Shown here in pieces: positions 5,734 through 64,000 of a stretch of DNA of 64,000 nt. The translations under genes were made by a program, and so were the position numbers. This DNA is from Tistrella mobilis. GTDB lineage: Bacteria; Pseudomonadota; Alphaproteobacteria; Tistrellales; Tistrellaceae. The stretch covers positions 124,001-188,000 of the forward strand of contig NZ_JBBIAB010000002.1 of the NCBI RefSeq assembly GCF_039634785.1, read 5' to 3'. The notes beneath the pieces are model-generated. The model was not told the DNA's origin, did no database searches, and saw only the letters and a list, made by a program, of their open reading frames with translations. Each line of letters begins with the position of its first letter. Position 1 is the first letter of the stretch.

Positions 5734-5892
5734 CAGGATCCTCCGCACCGGAACCGGACGAAGGCGGCGGGACAAAGGCCCCGCCGCCCGGCGATGTTGT
5801 GTTGTTGGGGCAGGTGGCACCCGGCAGAAGCGCCACGGCGGTTGTCGCGGATGTCCGTTGCCGGCCTCACCCGTTTGTGCACGAACACCAAT

Positions 5893-5924
5893 ACCGTCAT
5901 CCCGGCGAAGGCCGGGATCCAGGT
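5893..5924 (+). repeat. Intergenic palindromic repeat, copy 1
   Basis: This copy has an internal palindrome around CCCGGCGAAGGCCGGG. Its reverse complement is found again at 6041-6072 with a perfect 32-bp match, so the two copies could form one long hairpin in the dctP-dctQ mRNA. Confidence 0.8.
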
Positions 5925-6040
5925 AGGCTTCTACGGAAATGGACGGCGATCATCCCTGGTGATGGATCGTGTCAGGCGTTGTGATCCACGCCATCTGCGG
6001 GCGAGCGCGAGGTGTTCGGCGTCCTTTTTTGTGGAGACAG

Positions 6041-6072
6041 ACCTGGATCCCGGCCTTCGCCGGGATGACGGT
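6041..6072 (-). repeat. Intergenic palindromic repeat, copy 2
   Basis: Inverted copy of the element at 5893-5924, identical over 32 bp. It lies about 90 bp downstream of the dctP stop on the transcribed strand. REP-like dispersed elements of this kind are common between genes in high-G+C alphaproteobacteria. Confidence 0.8.
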
Positions 6073-6158
6073 GTAAACGTCGTTCAGGAATTGTCCCCTG
6101 CGGATCCGGACATCGGCAGGACGAACGGAAGGAGGCGTCCGCCTCCCTCCTTCTCCCC

Positions 6159-35146: not shown

Positions 35147-36067
35147 CTACCCGCCGAAGACCAGCGACCGGTGCGCGCCCACCCCCGCCCGCACGCCCGA
35201 GGCGAGGGCCAGACTGGCATTGTGCATGGGAAAGGCGATGTCGCCCGCGGCGTAGACGCCCGCAACCGAGGTCAGGCCCCAGTCGTCGGTCGCGATCCAG
35301 GGGCCGGTCGGGCCGGTTTCGGTGCGGCAGCCCAGCATCCCGGGCAGGGGGGTGGTGAAGGCGGGTTCGGGGGCGACGAACAGGCCGGTCATCGGCAGCG
35401 TGCGGCCGTCCGCCAGGCGCAGGCCGGTAAGGGCCGGGGCGGGGCCCAGCAGCTCCGCCACCGGCACGGTTTCGATGGTGATCCCGGCCGCGGCCAGGCG
35501 GGCGGCGGTTTCGGCATCGGGGGCGGGGATGCCGTCCAGCAGCAGCGTCGTCGGCCCCCAGTCGGTGAAGAGCAGCGCATGCGCCGCCATGTCGGGGCGG
35601 GTGGCGAGCACGCCGATCGGCCCGCCCGCCGTTTCATAGCCATGGCAATAGGGGCAATGCAGCACGCCATGGCCCCAGCGTTCGGCCAGCGCCGCGGCCA
35701 GCTTGCGGCCGGCCCCGGCGCCGGGCATGCGGTCGGCCAGGCCATGGGCCAGGATCAGCCGGGCGGCCGACATCTCGCGGCCATCGGCCAGCTGCACCAG
35801 GGAACCGTCATCCATGGCGGCAGCGGCGGCCACTTGGCCGCCGATCAGCGTTGCCGCCGGATAGGCGGCAAGCTGGGCGCGGGCCTCTCCCAGAATCGCG
35901 GCAGGGCTGCGGCCATCCTGCCCGGGCATGCCGTGCAGCGCGGGCGAGAACCGGTTGCGCGGCTGGCCGGCATCGATCACCGCCACCCGCCGCCGCGCGC
36001 GGGCCAGCTGCATCGCCGCCGCCAGCCCCGCAAAGCTGCCGCCGACCACGATCGCGTCGAAGTGCAT
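35147..36067 (-). CDS. Thioredoxin-reductase-like FAD/NAD(P) oxidoreductase
   Basis: The 306-residue flavoprotein has an N-terminal FAD-binding motif (IVVGGSFAGLAAAMQLARA), a redox CxxC pair in HCPYCHGYE near residue 140 and a C-terminal YAAGDIAF block that closes on FAD. The classical NADPH motif is weak (GVLATRPDMAAH), which places it with the short thioredoxin-reductase-like group. It is divergent from an Rrf2 gene across a perfect 18-bp palindrome, so redox or nitrosative control is plausible. Confidence 0.88.
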   Translation of the reverse strand: MHFDAIVVGGSFAGLAAAMQLARARRRVAVIDAGQPRNRFSPALHGMPGQDGRSPAAILGEARAQLAAYPAATLIGGQVAAAAAMDDGSLVQLADGREMSAARLILAHGLADRMPGAGAGRKLAAALAERWGHGVLHCPYCHGYETAGGPIGVLATRPDMAAHALLFTDWGPTTLLLDGIPAPDAETAARLAAAGITIETVPVAELLGPAPALTGLRLADGRTLPMTGLFVAPEPAFTTPLPGMLGCRTETGPTGPWIATDDWGLTSVAGVYAAGDIAFPMHNASLALASGVRAGVGAHRSLVFGG

Positions 36068-36092
36068 GGATCTCTCCTGATCACGTATCGTT

Positions 36093-36110
36093 TAAAGTTA
36101 CGTAACTTTA
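36093..36110. promoter_or_regulatory. Perfect 18-bp palindrome, candidate Rrf2 operator
   Basis: TAAAGTTACGTAACTTTA is a perfect palindrome in an A+T-rich pocket, 26 bp before the flavoprotein start and 120 bp before the Rrf2-type start. Its length and position fit a homodimeric winged-helix regulator. Confidence 0.75.
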
Positions 36111-36229
36111 GGAGTGGCGTGGCCAGCCCGTCAAGACTCATGTCGCTTCCGCTCTTGCGTGACGGGGCTGCATGATGGGATGAAGGGATCGAAGCCCGCC
36201 TGCCACCCTTGACCGCCCGGACCCACGCG

Positions 36230-36706
36230 ATGAGATCCGACAGCCGCCTGTCGCGCATGCTGCATGTGCTGATCCACATGAACCGCCATGACGGCCCGAT
36301 GACCTCGGACGCCATCGCGGCGATGCTGTCGACCAATCCTGTGGTGGTGCGCCGCACCATGGCCGGCCTGCGCGAGGCGGGCCATGTGCGCTCGGAAAAG
36401 GGCCATGGCGGCGGCTGGACCCTGGCGCGGCCGCTGGCCGACATCACGCTTCTGGATGTGTACCGGGCGGTGGGCGACCCTGCCATCTTCGCGATCGGGC
36501 TGGCCCGCGACAACCCGGACTGCCTGGTGGAACAGGCGGTGGATGCGGCGTTGGCTGACGCGCTCGCCGCGGCCGAGGCGGTGCTGCGCGCCCGGCTGGC
36601 TGCGGTGACGCTTCAGGATCTGGCGCAGGATTTCGAGCGGCGGCTGGCCGATACCGGGCTGACGGGGCCGGCCTGCCCGGTAGAAACCTCTCCGGTCGAG
36701 GGCTGA
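36230..36706 (+). CDS. Rrf2-family transcriptional regulator
   Basis: The 158-residue protein has the Rrf2 winged helix (MRSDSRLSRMLHVLIHM, then SDAIAAMLSTNPVVVRRTMAGL and the RSEKGHGGGWTLARP wing). The three clustered Cys that hold Fe-S in IscR/NsrR are absent; only scattered Cys remain, so sensing must work in another way (YwnA-like group). ATG 36230 is preferred over an upstream TTG by comparison with family starts. It probably controls the divergent flavoprotein. Confidence 0.88.
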   Translation: MRSDSRLSRMLHVLIHMNRHDGPMTSDAIAAMLSTNPVVVRRTMAGLREAGHVRSEKGHGGGWTLARPLADITLLDVYRAVGDPAIFAIGLARDNPDCLVEQAVDAALADALAAAEAVLRARLAAVTLQDLAQDFERRLADTGLTGPACPVETSPVEG

Positions 36707-36719
36707 GACCGCGCCACCG

Positions 36720-37454
36720 TCAGAGCAGCGGGATCACCATCAGCGTCGTGCAGACCGCATTCGCCAGCATGCCGGCTGCCGCCATCGCCGCCATGTCGCC
36801 GCCGCGGGGGGCGGCATGGGCCACGCCGATCGCATGGCTGGTGAGGCCGAGGGTGAAGCCGGTGACGCGGTCGTCGTCGCGCAGGCCCGCCAGCCGGGTC
36901 AGCGCCAGCCGCGCCAGCAGCGGCGTGACCATGGCGCCGAACAGCCCGTTGCCCAGAATGCCGAGCATGGTGACGTCCATGGTGCTGCCCAGGCTTTGTG
37001 CCAGCGGGATCGCGACCGGCGCCGTGACCGCGCGCAGGCCCAGCCCCAGCTGGTCGGCCAGGGGCAGGCCCAGCAGCGGGCCGATCAGGAAGATGCCGAG
37101 GAACGAGGTGGCGCCGCCGGCGATCGTGCCCGCCACCAGCGGCCGCCAGACCGCGCGCAGATAGACCCGCATCCGCCAGAGCGGCACGGCCATGGCGGCG
37201 GTTGCCGGCAGCAGGGCGGCCGAAAGGGGCGTGGTCGCGCGGCCGTAGTCACCGACCGGAAGATCGATCGCGGTCAGCACGCCGGTGATCAGCACCGCCG
37301 CGGTCAGCACCGGGGTCAGAAAGGCCGATCCCCGCGCCGCCGCCCATAACCGCCGCGCCGCGGCCCAGGCCGCGAAGGTGAGCGCCAGCAGCGCCACCCC
37401 CTGCCAGGAAAGCGCCCGTGCCCAGGCCAGAAGCTCGGTGACGGGATCAGTCAT
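36720..37454 (-). CDS. lrgB: LrgB-family membrane protein
   Basis: The 244-residue protein has six or seven hydrophobic segments and the LrgB signature regions, including LRAVTAPVAIPLAQSLG and the GLTSHAIGVAHA block near the C-terminus. LrgB-type proteins act with LrgA in murein hydrolase control or in export of pyruvate/glycolate-like acids. It overlaps lrgA by 8 bp, so the pair is translated together. Confidence 0.85.
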   Translation of the reverse strand: MTDPVTELLAWARALSWQGVALLALTFAAWAAARRLWAAARGSAFLTPVLTAAVLITGVLTAIDLPVGDYGRATTPLSAALLPATAAMAVPLWRMRVYLRAVWRPLVAGTIAGGATSFLGIFLIGPLLGLPLADQLGLGLRAVTAPVAIPLAQSLGSTMDVTMLGILGNGLFGAMVTPLLARLALTRLAGLRDDDRVTGFTLGLTSHAIGVAHAAPRGGDMAAMAAAGMLANAVCTTLMVIPLL

Positions 37455-37854
37455 GGCCGCGCGCCCCGCGCTCCGCCGCCGGGATCGGCGGCTGCCGCCT
37501 CAGGCGGGTGAACACGCCCACCGTCACCGCCACCGTCACCGGCAGGGTCAGGCCGATGGCGAGCAGCAGCCCCGGCAGCCGGCCGGGATCTTCCACCATC
37601 GCCTGCAGGGCCCGGGTGGCGGGCGGGATGAGGAACAGCCCCAGCAGCGGCAGCAGAACATCCCCCGCCGCCTCGATCGGCCGCCGCGCCGCCGGCAGCC
37701 AGGCGAGCACGGCCAGCACGATCGGCACCGCCAGAATCTGCCCCGGCAGCCCGATCCCGGTCACCGCCGACAGCCAGCTGCCGACCATGCAGGCCAGCCC
37801 GAACCCGACCGTCCCGACGCAGACCGCGCCGGCCTTCTTCCACCCCGTCGCCAT
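37447..37854 (-). CDS. lrgA: CidA/LrgA-family membrane protein
   Basis: The 135-residue protein has four membrane helices and the holin-like LrgA pattern (GIGLPGQILAVPIVLAVL, then LLPLLGLFLIPPATRAL). ATG 37854 has AAGGG upstream. It is the first gene of an lrgA-lrgB pair. No LytTR or LysR regulator is adjacent. Confidence 0.82.
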   Translation of the reverse strand: MATGWKKAGAVCVGTVGFGLACMVGSWLSAVTGIGLPGQILAVPIVLAVLAWLPAARRPIEAAGDVLLPLLGLFLIPPATRALQAMVEDPGRLPGLLLAIGLTLPVTVAVTVGVFTRLRRQPPIPAAERGARGHD

Positions 37855-38044
37855 GAAACCCTTCGCGATGCTGTGTGTGGCGGCGGGCAGTATGCATCAG
37901 GGGAGGGGGGAAGGGGTAATGCGGTTGGGGCGGGGCGCTTGGGGCGGGGGTGGTATCGGCCGGCTGTCCTGGAAAGCGGCCGGGGCCTTGCCGCTATGGC
38001 GTGGATGGCTTAGTCTTTAGAACGATTGGTGAACGAGGTGCGCT

Positions 38045-38341
38045 ATGGCGGACGTCGAGAAGATGACGGTTGTCCTGCCGCCAGACATGGCAGGGGCCGT
38101 CCGTGATGCAGTGCAGACGGGCCAATACGCCTCGACCAGCGAGGTGATCGGCGAGGCCGTGCGCGAATGGCACGATCGTCGCGATCTGCTGGGCTACACG
38201 GTCGACGAATTGCGCGATCTGGTTCAGGCCGGTATCGACAGCGGCCCGTCGATCGACGCCGAAGAGGTCTTCGCGGGACTTCGTGAGAAGCTGCGCGCCC
38301 GCCCTTCCGACGACAGAGTCAGGCTTTCCGACGACCTATGA
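38045..38341 (+). CDS. parD: ParD-type ribbon-helix-helix antitoxin
   Basis: The 98-residue protein has the RHH DNA-binding strand and helices in the first half (MTVVLPPDMAGAVRDAV, then YASTSEVIGEAVREW) and an acidic, less ordered tail that would wrap around ParE. The start has GAGGTG upstream. The stop overlaps the next ATG (ATGA), as in coupled parDE operons. The toxin frame that begins there is cut short. Confidence 0.85.
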   Translation: MADVEKMTVVLPPDMAGAVRDAVQTGQYASTSEVIGEAVREWHDRRDLLGYTVDELRDLVQAGIDSGPSIDAEEVFAGLREKLRARPSDDRVRLSDDL

Positions 38342-38370
38342 AGCTTCGGCTTCTTCCGCAGGCGGCGGCG
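38338..38370 (+). pseudogene. ParE toxin remnant (first 11 codons)
   Basis: The first codons, MKLRLLPQAAA, are a normal ParE beginning, coupled by ATGA to parD. After codon 11 the frame turns into Ser/Arg/Thr-rich text with no ParE helices or beta-sheet pattern, so the rest of the toxin gene has been replaced or deleted. Confidence 0.6.
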
Positions 38371-38725
38371 GCATCGCCGATCCCCGCCAGCGCCACCTTG
38401 CGCAGGCGCGGCGTGGCGACTGTCTCGGGCGCCGCCAACCGGGTCATCACCCGGTCCAGCAGATCGGCCGGCATTCCACCCGACTGCCGCCAGGACCCCG
38501 CGACCGCGAGCGTTTCAGTCCCGCGCCCGCTCTCTGCCCCCAGGACCTCCGCCACCCGGGCGGTCACCAGATCCCGCACCACCACCACGACCAGCCGCAT
38601 GGCGCCCCCCATCCGATCAACCCTGGGGCGAGGCAATCATCCGGACGGGTGAGCGTGGAGAGTGAAGGGTCACAGGATCGGAGGGGGCGCTTTTGAAAAG
38701 GGAGAGGGCAAGACACAGGAAAGCG
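38371..38725. other. No confident gene
   Basis: This stretch follows the ParE breakpoint. A minus-strand frame (38319-38600, starting MRLVVVVVRDLVTARV) has plausible codon use but no family I recognise and no ribosome site, and may be a remnant. Nothing else is evident before the 36-bp repeats. Confidence 0.4.
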
Positions 38726-38828
38726 CATGACCGGAGCGATTGGTCATGGCTTCAAACTCCCGGACGGCCTGAGCGTCGGCGGTTCTCGTTTCCATGACCG
38801 GAGCGATTGGTCATGGCTTCAAACTCCC
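38726..38828 (+). CRISPR. Candidate two-repeat CRISPR-like array
   Basis: Two identical 36-bp repeats (38726-38761 and 38793-38828) flank a 31-bp unique spacer (38762-38792). Each repeat starts with a perfect 7-bp stem, CATGACC/GGTCATG, around a 9-nt loop, followed by a single-stranded tail ending TTCAAACTCCC. Repeat and spacer sizes are normal for CRISPR. An A+T-rich stretch (about 38830-38970) lies on one side like a leader. With only two repeats this could also be a 67-bp tandem duplication; no cas gene is adjacent, though a cas1 gene lies at 63 kb and an RT fragment at 39 kb. Confidence 0.45.
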
Positions 38829-38977
38829 CCTCTTCCAGGCCATTGTCAAGATATCCTGTTTTCGCCCATTTTCCATCGGGACCGAGGTCATTTCATACAT
38901 ACGTATTCGTCCCGTGAAGACATACAGATTTCTGTAATAATATCAGACAATTATAAATTCCACAGGGTCTTTCCGCC
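38829..38977. other. A+T-rich stretch after the repeats
   Basis: This ~150-bp region is clearly richer in A+T than the rest of the window (for example TCATACATACGTATTC and ATAATATCAGACAATT segments). It has no gene and could be a CRISPR leader or the promoter of the RT fragment. Confidence 0.45.
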
Positions 38978-39235
38978 ATGTTCGACCGTCTGCCCGCTCC
39001 CGATCGGCTCCGGGAAGGCTGGTCCAAGATGTTGCGCAACCGCGGCGGCCCGGGTGGTGATGGTGAAAGTCTGGATGCCTTCCGTATCGGTGTCGAGCCC
39101 CGGCTTGCCCGGCTGGCGGCGGATGTGCGGGGTGGGACCTGGCGGCCGGGGCCCTATCGTCTGCTCGATCGCCTGAGAGAGGCGACCGGGGACGCCCGTC
39201 TGGTCGACCTGGTCGGTCTCTGGCTGGGTGCATAA
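38978..39235 (+). pseudogene. Reverse transcriptase fragment, internally deleted
   Basis: The frame encodes 85 residues. Residues ~8-61 match the start of bacterial reverse transcriptases (LREGW, NRGGPGGDG, SLDAF and TWRPGPYR blocks of the RT0/X region). The next residues, LLDRLREATGDARLVDLVGLWL, resemble the segment after the first catalytic Asp block of group II-like and CRISPR-associated RTs. The ~100 residues between, with the fingers and first Asp motif, are missing, and the thumb and YADD motif are absent. An in-frame internal deletion and a lost 3' end explain this. It is not an active polymerase. Confidence 0.6.
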
Positions 39236-39329
39236 AATGCACAGACATCATTGGCCTGTGATTTTTTCCGGTGCCCGAGCAGCTCCGGAACATTGCTGAG
39301 GGGGCCGGTGCTTCTGCAATCCCAGATCA

Positions 39330-39500
39330 TCAGGCCGTCCGCTCCTGCACCTTCTGGCGCGGGCGGGTGATGGAGATCGATCCGGCATAGACGATTCCGG
39401 GCATGATCTGTTTCCAGGTAACGGCCGCAGCATAGATGCGACCAATCTCCGCGGAACTCTGGCACCCATCATCGCAGGTCGCCTGAGCGATCATATGCAT
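39330..39500 (-). CDS. Small protein of unknown function (56 residues)
   Basis: The frame starts at ATG 39500 with GGTGAGGG six to nine bases upstream. It encodes a mixed-composition protein (MHMIAQATCDDGCQSS at the start, two Cys three residues apart, and a GIVYAGSISITRP stretch near the end). It is divergent from the cupin gene and shares the region with two GntR-type palindromes, which raises the chance that it is real. No family is recognised; a gene remnant is possible. Confidence 0.4.
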   Translation of the reverse strand: MHMIAQATCDDGCQSSAEIGRIYAAAVTWKQIMPGIVYAGSISITRPRQKVQERTA

Positions 39501-39530
39501 CACGTCCCTCACCTTTCCGGCGGCGCTATA

Positions 39531-63145: not shown

Positions 63146-64000
63146 CTAATAGTCGATCAGGCAGGGGCTGAACACGCCCGTCTCTTCGACATGCGCCGCC
63201 CAGCTGGCGAGCCGGCCGTCGATCAGCGCGCGCCAGCTGGCCTTTTCGCCGTCGGGGCCGGTCGCCACGCGGTCGAGCTGGGCTTCCCAGGTCTCCAGCA
63301 CCCGCCGGCCGGGCTGGGGCAGGATGCGCCAGCCGCCATCCTGCCCCCGCCCGACGTCGGTAGGGGCAATGCGAGGGAGGGGGCGGCGGATGATGTCGTC
63401 GGGCTGCAGGATGCGGTTGTTGAACAGATAGACGGTGCAGGTCTCGACCAGCGGGGCGGCGAAGACCTCCACCAGATCCGCCACCAGCCCGTCCTCTGCC
63501 GTCGCCACCTCGTGGCAGGCGCCGAAGCCGGGATGCAGGCCATGGCGGGTGGCGGCGGTGCGGATTTCGCGCGCCAGCAGCGCCGTCAGCCAGTCCAGCA
63601 CCAGATTGACCGGATCGGTCGCCCCGCGTCGCAGCCGGCGGCGCAGGGTCCAGCCATGGCCGATCAGCTGGCCCAGGGCCGGCCAGTAGACCAGGGCGGC
63701 CTCGTCCGCCACCGCCAGCAGGTCGGGCACCGTATCCGCCACCCGCAGCTTGCGCCGGATGCGCTTCAGCCGCTCGGCCGCCCCCTCGACCGATACCAGC
63801 CGCTTGCGGCGGTCCAGCCGCTTCAGCAGGGCCTGCATGTTCTGCAACCGGGCATCCACCACCAGCCGCGCCAGGGCGTGGCGGCGGGCCGGGTCCAGCA
63901 GATGGCGGGCCTGGGCCAGATGGCGCGGCGCCTGATGCATCGGCGGGGGCGCCAGCCAGGCCTGAACCCCGCCCATGCCGTCCAGCAGCGCCACCGGGAT
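63146..64000 (-). CDS. cas1: CRISPR-associated integrase Cas1 (5' end outside the window)
   Basis: The visible 284 residues, open at the window edge, match the C-terminal helical domain of Cas1, which inserts new spacers. The metal ligands are present: Glu in ADEAALVYWPAL, His in GFGACHEVATAE and Asp in GLVADLVEVF. The N-terminal LDPARRHALARLVVDARLQNMQALL helix and the C-terminal RVLETWEAQLDRV and SWRALIDGRLA blocks also fit. A stretch of ~20 residues after ILQPDD (RPLPRIAPTDVG region) looks like an insertion. No cas2 follows downstream; other cas genes would lie beyond 64000. Confidence 0.85.
   Translation of the reverse strand: MPVALLDGMGGVQAWLAPPPMHQAPRHLAQARHLLDPARRHALARLVVDARLQNMQALLKRLDRRKRLVSVEGAAERLKRIRRKLRVADTVPDLLAVADEAALVYWPALGQLIGHGWTLRRRLRRGATDPVNLVLDWLTALLAREIRTAATRHGLHPGFGACHEVATAEDGLVADLVEVFAAPLVETCTVYLFNNRILQPDDIIRRPLPRIAPTDVGRGQDGGWRILPQPGRRVLETWEAQLDRVATGPDGEKASWRALIDGRLASWAAHVEETGVFSPCLIDY

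What the first reader, a model, noticed from the sequence alone, without database searches (positions are those of the whole stretch)
38726..38828. Two-repeat CRISPR-like array with no adjacent cas genes
Two perfect 36-bp repeats with a 31-bp unique spacer have the exact geometry of a CRISPR unit. Each repeat carries a 7-bp stem (CATGACC/GGTCATG), and an A+T-rich, leader-like stretch adjoins. An RT fragment lies 150 bp away and a cas1 gene 24 kb away in the same window. It could be a relic or a trans-acting mini-array.
Basis: partly seen in the sequence, partly recalled or inferred. Interest (0 to 1): 0.75.

Follow-up and report, generated by a model that had tools for sequence, protein, structure and literature searches.

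The report
Shipwrecked piece of a CRISPR locus
A two-repeat CRISPR array with its leader in a Tistrella bacterium is the leftover core of an immune locus that close relatives still carry whole, so it is a genuine but most likely retired CRISPR array.

Summary
In detail: two identical 36-bp stretches, 31 bp apart, at 38726-38828. They are a real CRISPR array: repeat 37 bp, spacer 30 nt, crRNA strand minus, AT-rich leader 38825-38977. The same genome has five other small arrays of near-identical repeats with the same leader, and two single-repeat copies. Both congeners searched carry an intact type III-D locus: Cas10, RAMP proteins, Cas6, CorA-like gene, array, leader, RT-Cas1, Cas2; one is Tistrella mobilis KA081020-065 plasmid pTM1. 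Window 38356-39227 aligns at 84-96% with the middle of that locus: CorA-like gene start, array, leader and RT-Cas1 start, the last with an in-frame 261-bp deletion between 12-bp repeats. The scrap sits inside a broken parE-like gene, at a different place from the relatives' locus. No III-D effector gene was found in this genome. Verdict: a dislocated relic, probably inactive. The "cas1" 24 kb away is an RT-Cas1 paralog that lost RT catalytic residues but kept the Cas1 ones.

The parts
38045..38341 (+). parD-like antitoxin gene, left neighbour of the scrap (not part of the CRISPR locus)
   Evidence: Pfam ParD_antitoxin E 1.9e-4, 22.2 bits against a cut-off of 21; 95.8% DNA match to G002 over 37921-38375
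38338..38375 (+). first 11 codons of a parE-like gene (named by its place after parD, not scanned), broken by the junction with the CRISPR scrap; homologies to both sides overlap at 38356-38375
   Evidence: G002 has an unbroken frame after parD; the window match to it stops at 38375 and III-D locus homology begins at 38356
38356..38600 (-). N-terminal scrap (about 80 codons) of the CorA-like gene of the III-D locus
   Evidence: stretch 38356-38825: 93% DNA identity to G002, 90% to G001; protein; intact G001 homologue matches PADLOC CorA-like, E 7e-31; the scrap itself matches no model
38721..38757 (-). trailer-end CRISPR repeat without its GTTTC end, as in the G001 terminal repeat
38758..38787 (-). 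single 30-nt spacer; not found among the other spacers compared
38788..38824 (-). leader-side CRISPR repeat, 37 of 37 identical to the leader-side array-2 repeat of G001 and of G002
38825..38977 (-). CRISPR leader (AT-rich); first 40 nt 39/40 identical to G001 and to G002; shares the TCCCC..CTTCCA..TTGTCAAG and TTCCAC..GGT elements, allowing for a few changes, with 14 other leaders
38978..39235 (+). truncated RT-Cas1 pseudogene (85 aa; homology to 39227) with an in-frame 261-bp deletion across the 12-bp repeat now at 39158-39169
63146..64000 (-). RT-Cas1 fusion paralog (3' part; 610 aa in all, runs beyond the window); RT catalytic residues lost, Cas1 residues kept. Not part of the scrap; the only RT-Cas1 gene of full length found in this genome

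Best explanation
The feature is the surviving middle of a type III-D CRISPR-Cas locus with an RT-Cas1 fusion. In the intact locus the array and leader lie between two divergent genes, a CorA-like gene on one side and RT-Cas1 on the other. Here an approximately 870-bp piece with the start of the CorA-like gene, a one-spacer array, the leader and the start of RT-Cas1 sits at another place, joined to a parE-like gene at a G+C-rich overlap. The rest of the locus was not found in this genome. In an intact relative the array would be transcribed from the leader on the minus strand, cut in the repeat by Cas6, and the crRNA loaded into the Cas10/Cas7 complex; RT-Cas1 with Cas2 would add spacers next to the leader. 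Shown here: anatomy, homology, failure to find the effector genes in the assembly. Inferred: the immune mechanism (from established knowledge of the families) and present inactivity.
For: Alignment of window 38356-39227 to the intact locus in both congeners. Intact locus identified gene by gene in G002 with PADLOC, Pfam and NCBIfam, and in G001 by protein comparison with G002 for 7 genes and RefSeq annotation of pTM1. Leader-side repeat 37/37 and first leader bases 39/40 identical. DNA of the locus searched in the own genome returns the scrap, the RT-Cas1 paralog, the other arrays and copies, and four short hits. RAMP search of the own genome finds one stub at a contig end against 3 and 9 matches in the congeners, 3 in each inside the III-D locus. 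RT fragment truncated at 85 codons of 663-671, with a 261-bp deletion between 12-bp repeats. Window flanks match congener DNA at a place without CRISPR.
Against: Repeat and first leader bases are better preserved (76 of 77 positions) than the rest of the leader (95/112 and 100/113), which could mean recent decay or continuing use. The single spacer is not one of the congeners' spacers, so the piece is not a simple contraction of either known array. The own-genome DNA search scored only 40 of 692 first-look candidates and did not cover most of cas2. The assembly has 62 contigs, so a III-D effector on unassembled DNA cannot be excluded. No transcription data.
Confidence: 0.9

Rival explanations
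1. It is a working mini-array served in trans, by effector and adaptation proteins encoded elsewhere in the genome or re-supplied by another plasmid.
For: Six multi-repeat arrays with conserved leaders persist in this genome; an RT-Cas1 paralog with the Cas1 residues kept is present; a survey reports that arrays with identical repeats gain spacers at comparable rates whatever their distance from the cas genes (PMC12814883, abstract passage).
Against: No III-D RAMP gene by family search (6 of 6 candidates scored) and no DNA match to the effector operon or its cas6 among the 40 of 692 candidates scored, four short unfollowed hits apart. The I-C proteins present belong to a system that, from established knowledge, uses another repeat and Cas5c for processing.
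Confidence: 0.08
2. It is an orphan array kept as an anti-cas guard against an incoming III-D locus, as proposed for E. coli I-F orphan arrays.
For: Orphan arrays without a detected effector, in a genus where the III-D locus of one strain lies on a plasmid; precedent described in PMC12814883 (passages).
Against: None of the 13 spacers taken from this genome matches the two congener cas loci or other held DNA within 8 mismatches, themselves apart.
Confidence: 0.01
3. It is a chance or ordinary tandem duplication unrelated to CRISPR.
For: Only two repeats and one spacer at this place.
Against: Same repeat with different spacers of 29-39 nt in 11 further arrays of three genomes; leader conserved; direct alignment to a locus annotated with cas1, cas2 and RAMP genes.
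Confidence: 0.005

Closest known systems
Type III-D CRISPR-Cas locus with RT-Cas1 on Tistrella mobilis KA081020-065 plasmid pTM1 (NC_017957.2, 403.6-419.2 kb)
   Same: Identical leader-side repeat, leader 39/40 in the first 40 nt, same divergent arrangement of CorA-like gene, array, leader and RT-Cas1
   Different: Window copy has one spacer (8 in the corresponding pTM1 array), lacks effector genes, Cas6 and most of RT-Cas1, and has other neighbours
Orphan CRISPR arrays (arrays without their cas genes in the genome; passages of PMC12814883)
   Same: Array and leader without the matching effector
   Different: Here the original locus can be identified and scraps of two of its genes remain beside the array
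RT-Cas1 adaptation module of Azospirillum lipoferum 4B plasmid AZO_p2
   Same: Gene annotated cas1, 672 codons, whose DNA matches the RT part at 67% over 31% of a 2-kb query; followed by cas2
   Different: There beside type III-B cmr genes and cas6; its repeat was not compared

Membership tests
CRISPR array | near-identical direct repeats of a few tens of bp, often with partial dyad symmetry | tested here: met
   37-bp repeat with 7-bp stem, 2 copies here
CRISPR array | unique spacers of similar length | tested here: met
   30 nt here; 29-39 nt in 32 spacers of three genomes, none shared; with one spacer here this rests on the sister arrays
CRISPR array | AT-rich leader on one side, shared by arrays of the same system | tested here: met
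   18 leader-side segments aligned: 15 share the leader, window included; one isolated repeat (C2:231409) has none and two C6:32400-type copies share only its first part; GC
CRISPR array | spacers derived from phages or plasmids | tested here: inconclusive
   window spacer: no convincing match in phages, plasmids or IMG/VR; 3 of the 11 sister arrays with spacers searched in phages only: no match at E 0.05
Type III-D CRISPR-Cas (intact locus in congeners) | cas10 plus III-D type Cas7/Cas5 RAMP proteins | tested here: met
   G002: Cas10 E 1.4e-34, Csm4 III-D E 4.7e-64, Cas7_IIId E 8.9e-40, TIGR03986 E 4.1e-64 over its cut-off; Cas6 strong in PADLOC (E 1e-201) but below Pfam's cut-off. G001 by protein comparison. 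No Cas10 tree was made
Type III-D CRISPR-Cas (window locus) | effector genes cas10 and RAMPs present | tested here: not met
   RAMP family search of the own genome: one stub elsewhere; DNA of the locus: no effector match beyond four short unfollowed hits among the 40 of 692 candidates scored
Functional crRNA-producing array | transcription and Cas6 processing | not testable with these tools
   no RNA data; the matching cas6 was not found by DNA search
RT-Cas1 fusion (38978-39235) | complete RT and Cas1 domains | tested here: not met
   85 codons against 663-671; catalytic RT motifs and the Cas1 domain missing

The most novel reading that the evidence does not exclude
In this strain a lone RT-Cas1 fusion that has lost its RT catalytic residues, but kept the Cas1 ones, still serves several orphan III-D-type arrays (the window one included). 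These would be a dormant spacer library without an effector, usable again whenever a III-D plasmid enters the cell.
Probability: 0.06. Interest if true: 0.6.

Novelty: new member of a known kind. Interest (0 to 1): 0.27.

Why it matters
With intact relatives for comparison it shows how a CRISPR locus is taken apart: what survives is the stretch between two divergent genes that holds array and leader, and the repeat outlasts the genes. For annotation, a minimal two-repeat array with a real leader can be genuine and still be retired. The dispersed leader-bearing arrays of Tistrella and the RT-dead RT-Cas1 paralog offer a tractable system for asking whether orphan arrays are ever re-used.

Tried and rejected
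Rfam scan of the window: no family. The search for related loci with the RT-Cas1 paralog in genome contigs: 34 candidate stretches, none confirmed; since pTM1, which carries a relative 61% identical in its Cas1 part, is in that collection, this miss says little. Spacer against phages: 75 records, 20 listed, lowest E listed 0.05, 87% over 31 bases, one of which is repeat; plasmids: 70 records, 20 listed, lowest E listed 0.5; IMG/VR: 0 matches for 27 nt, 11 stretches for an 18-mer core, of which one contig (L158, two places) comes within 6 mismatches of 30 and the other ten do not: taken as chance. Anti-cas spacers: none found. Repeat pattern in genome contigs: 6 stretches, 3 of them on pTM1 and 3 single matches in unrelated MAGs, not followed. 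I first read two plus-strand ORFs between the arrays (448 and 673 aa) as cas genes; RefSeq annotation and a second scan show one minus-strand CorA-like gene instead. Simple contraction of a congener's array: rejected, no spacer is shared; a G002 terminal spacer that the pattern missed was compared apart (13 mismatches). Promoter scan of 38300-39300: none; one terminator-like site at 39240-39260, minus strand, against 0.5 expected. RNA fold of the two-repeat transcript: z -2.16, 4 of 200 shuffles as stable, and the two repeats pair with each other in the predicted minimum; not used. Papers: searches. The search for Tistrella with CRISPR listed 9 papers, judged by title and start of abstract only; none looked to be about CRISPR in that genus. 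One search was too broad to be useful.

Full report
What is there. The window holds two identical 36-bp stretches at 38726-38761 and 38793-38828; no match with up to 3 mismatches arose in 100 shuffles of the window. The window is G000:C2:124001-188000 of a 6.16-Mb, 62-contig genome. A search of the whole genome for the palindromic core CATGACC-N9-GGTCAYG found it, exact on at least one strand, at 19 places, 13 on contig C2 and 6 on C13. One more copy with one mismatch, C6:32405, belongs to the family; the four other one-mismatch places, on C1, C6, C10 and C16, do not look like this repeat. In the strand that ends in GAAAC the repeat is 37 bp: GTTTGAAGSCATGACC-N9-GGTCATGGAAAC. On this reading the window array is on the minus strand: leader 38825-38977, repeat 38788-38824, spacer 38758-38787, and a trailer-end repeat 38721-38757 whose last five bases are different.

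The own genome holds six arrays of this repeat with two or more copies: window (2), C2:213651 (3), C2:230497 (4), C2:232586 (3), C13:62325 (4) and C13:121489 (3, one degenerate), plus isolated copies at C2:231409 and C6:32400 and two decayed ones at C2:231056 and C2:233077. Eighteen leader-side segments from three genomes were aligned. Fifteen share the leader, from TCCCC..CTTCCA..TTGTCAAG to TTCCAC..GGT with a few changes; the two C6:32400-type copies share its first part only, and the isolated copy C2:231409 has none. The lowest-GC 91 bases of the window start at 38868, in the leader.

The intact locus. Two other genomes of the genus were available; both hold the repeat, RAMP-family genes and one RT-Cas1 gene. 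In G002 (L092) the order is Cas10, a 755-aa Csm4/RAMP protein, a 544-aa protein with two RAMP stretches, a 799-aa TIGR03986 protein, Cas6, a single repeat with leader, the CorA-like gene on the opposite strand, the main array, leader, RT-Cas1, Cas2. G001 has the same seven genes that I compared, 43 to 98% identical at protein level; the two Cas7 proteins are the divergent ones (65% and 43%), the other five 88-98%. The CorA-like match was made on the G001 protein. G001 contig 2 has the length and content of plasmid pTM1 of Tistrella mobilis KA081020-065; RefSeq annotates three RAMP proteins, cas1 and cas2 there and calls Cas10, Cas6 and the CorA-like protein hypothetical. The tool lists G001 as the same species as the window's genome. 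I call the locus III-D on the strength of PADLOC III-D models and TIGR03986; I did not build a Cas10 tree.

The window piece is the middle of that locus. Window 38356-38825 aligns to G002 at 93.4% and to G001 (to 38824) at 90.4%; 38726-39169 at 88.4% and 88.6%; 39158-39227 at 95.7% and 84.3%. Read base by base, this is the first part of the CorA-like gene, the trailer, an array, the leader and the beginning of RT-Cas1. The leader-side repeat is 37 of 37 identical to both congeners and the first 40 leader bases 39 of 40; the rest of the leader 95/112 and 100/113. The RT-Cas1 scrap skips 261 bp of the G002 gene between two copies of CGTCTGCTCGAT, of which one remains at 39158; 261 is a multiple of three, so an 85-codon frame survives, but homology stops at 39227 and the frame ends at 39235. 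Of 60 compared codons the scrap differs from G002 by 8 silent and 6 amino-acid changes, and from G001 by 8 and 7, while the two intact genes differ from each other by 2 and 3. That would fit decay, but the numbers are small.

It is out of place. DNA to the left (36000-37927 in G001, to 38375 in G002) and to the right (from 39528) matches congener DNA at G001:C2:308.8-316.1 kb and G002:C2:449-458 kb at 92-97%, with other genes (in G001 a GTP-cyclohydrolase-like and an MFS-like frame, named from the translation by eye) in between and no CRISPR (one search scored 40 of 913 and 40 of 827 candidates). The congeners' III-D locus lies elsewhere: 403-419 kb in G001, and on another contig in G002. The left junction cuts a parE-like gene after 11 shared codons; homologies to both sides overlap by 20 GC-rich bases, 38356-38375. 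The 300 bases 39228-39527 match nothing held beyond chance. In G000 the place that corresponds to the G001 locus has anchors at C2:226.6-228.4 kb and C2:262.0-273.2 kb on one contig; between them lie two of the orphan arrays. The left anchor is only 1.8 kb long, so this placing is tentative.

The rest was not found. The DNA of the G002 locus (L092:300-15300) searched against the own genome gave 17 matches from 40 scored of 692 candidates: the scrap (3 rows), the RT-Cas1 paralog (3 rows), other arrays or isolated copies (7 rows), and four matches of 33-69 bases on C8, C17, C14 and C6 that I did not follow. The search did not cover most of cas2. The RAMP family search scored 6 of 6 candidates and gave one match, a stub (Cmr1-like by eye) about 0.3 kb from the end of contig C34. 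So no III-D effector and no matching Cas6 was detected. Type I-C genes cas3, cas5, cas8, cas7, cas4 and cas1 are present (cas2 not scanned), with no direct repeats of 24 bp or more within 400 bp of each other in the 20 kb examined.

The cas1 24 kb away. It is a 610-aa RT-Cas1 fusion, 57% identical to the intact G002 RT-Cas1. The RT half reads LDGTITHVTD where the intact genes have LDADITRFFD, and AAGE where they have FADD; these are the catalytic aspartates by my recollection of RT motifs. The Cas1 half keeps E, H and D at the columns that I recall as catalytic (GEAAAIYW/DEAALVYW, LHE/CHE, SDLIE/ADLVE). No array lies within 24 kb; its neighbours are an FMN-reductase-like and a short-chain dehydrogenase gene; I ran no cas2 search. 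No second RT-Cas1 was found in either congener.

Spacers. Thirty-two spacers were taken from three genomes (13, 13, 6) by the pattern, leaving out the 314-316-bp units and one G002 terminal spacer next to a degenerate repeat, compared separately with the window spacer (13 mismatches). No two of the 32 are alike: the closest pair has 13 mismatches in 30. Mean GC is 55.6%, against 69.2% for the window; the window spacer itself is 73%. Apart from themselves, none matches held DNA of these genomes exactly or within 6 mismatches; three have hits with 7 or 8, and two shuffled controls also reached 8. Leaders that look alike across species carry unrelated spacers, so the arrays were probably turning over after the species split; this is inferred from leader similarity, not from mapped synteny.

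How it would work and whether it does. By established knowledge of type III systems, the leader would drive a transcript across the array, Cas6 would cut it, and a Cas10 complex would use the crRNA to detect target RNA; RT-Cas1 with Cas2 would add spacers. [quoted passage not shown] In this genome the reading and cutting parts were not found, so the array is most likely silent or its transcript unused. Silas et al. (PMC5513706, passages; author name recalled) treat RT-Cas1 in type III systems; 'Tistrella' occurs 0 times in its main text.

Verdict. The relic reading is well supported and its origin is now known. Interest is modest: orphan and decayed arrays are known, and what is unusual is how clearly the parent locus can be identified.

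Noticed in passing
63146-64000 and on to G000:C2:188978 (L044:5147-6979, minus strand): RT-Cas1 fusion paralog, 610 aa, open frame; RT motif A aspartate and FADD lost, Cas1 E/H/D kept; no array within 24 kb; neither congener searched has a second RT-Cas1.
   Followed up: partly
L093 (G002:C2:57430-61111 and 69633-71078); L010 (G000:C2:230703-231445): A satellite of about 353-bp units, each one 37-bp CRISPR repeat plus a 314-316-bp stretch that is otherwise the array trailer; runs with 7 and 5 repeat copies in G002, a short run in G000.
   Followed up: partly
38045-38375: parD-like antitoxin gene intact, parE-like gene cut after 11 codons by the CRISPR scrap; G002 has both frames unbroken.
   Followed up: partly
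L051 (G000:C6:152919-160803): Type I-C cas genes with no repeat array detectable in the surrounding 20 kb.
   Followed up: partly
L059:9317-9703 (G000:C34 end): N-terminal stub of a RAMP-family gene, Cmr1-like by eye, about 0.3 kb from a contig end.
   Followed up: no
L052:7408-11331 (G000:C2:435407-439330, minus strand): 1307-aa DRT1a-type defence reverse transcriptase with a nitrilase-like part (PADLOC Drt1a, 1354 bits).
   Followed up: no
5892-6073: REP-like palindromic element (by eye) that recurs near orphan arrays in all three genomes.
   Followed up: no
39228-39527: About 300 bp between the CRISPR scrap and the right flank with no convincing match in the DNA held.
   Followed up: partly
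L090:4311-8209 against L092:4116-8151: The two Cas7-type proteins of the III-D locus are only 65% and 43% identical between the congeners while the other five compared proteins are 88-98%, as if this part had been exchanged.
   Followed up: no
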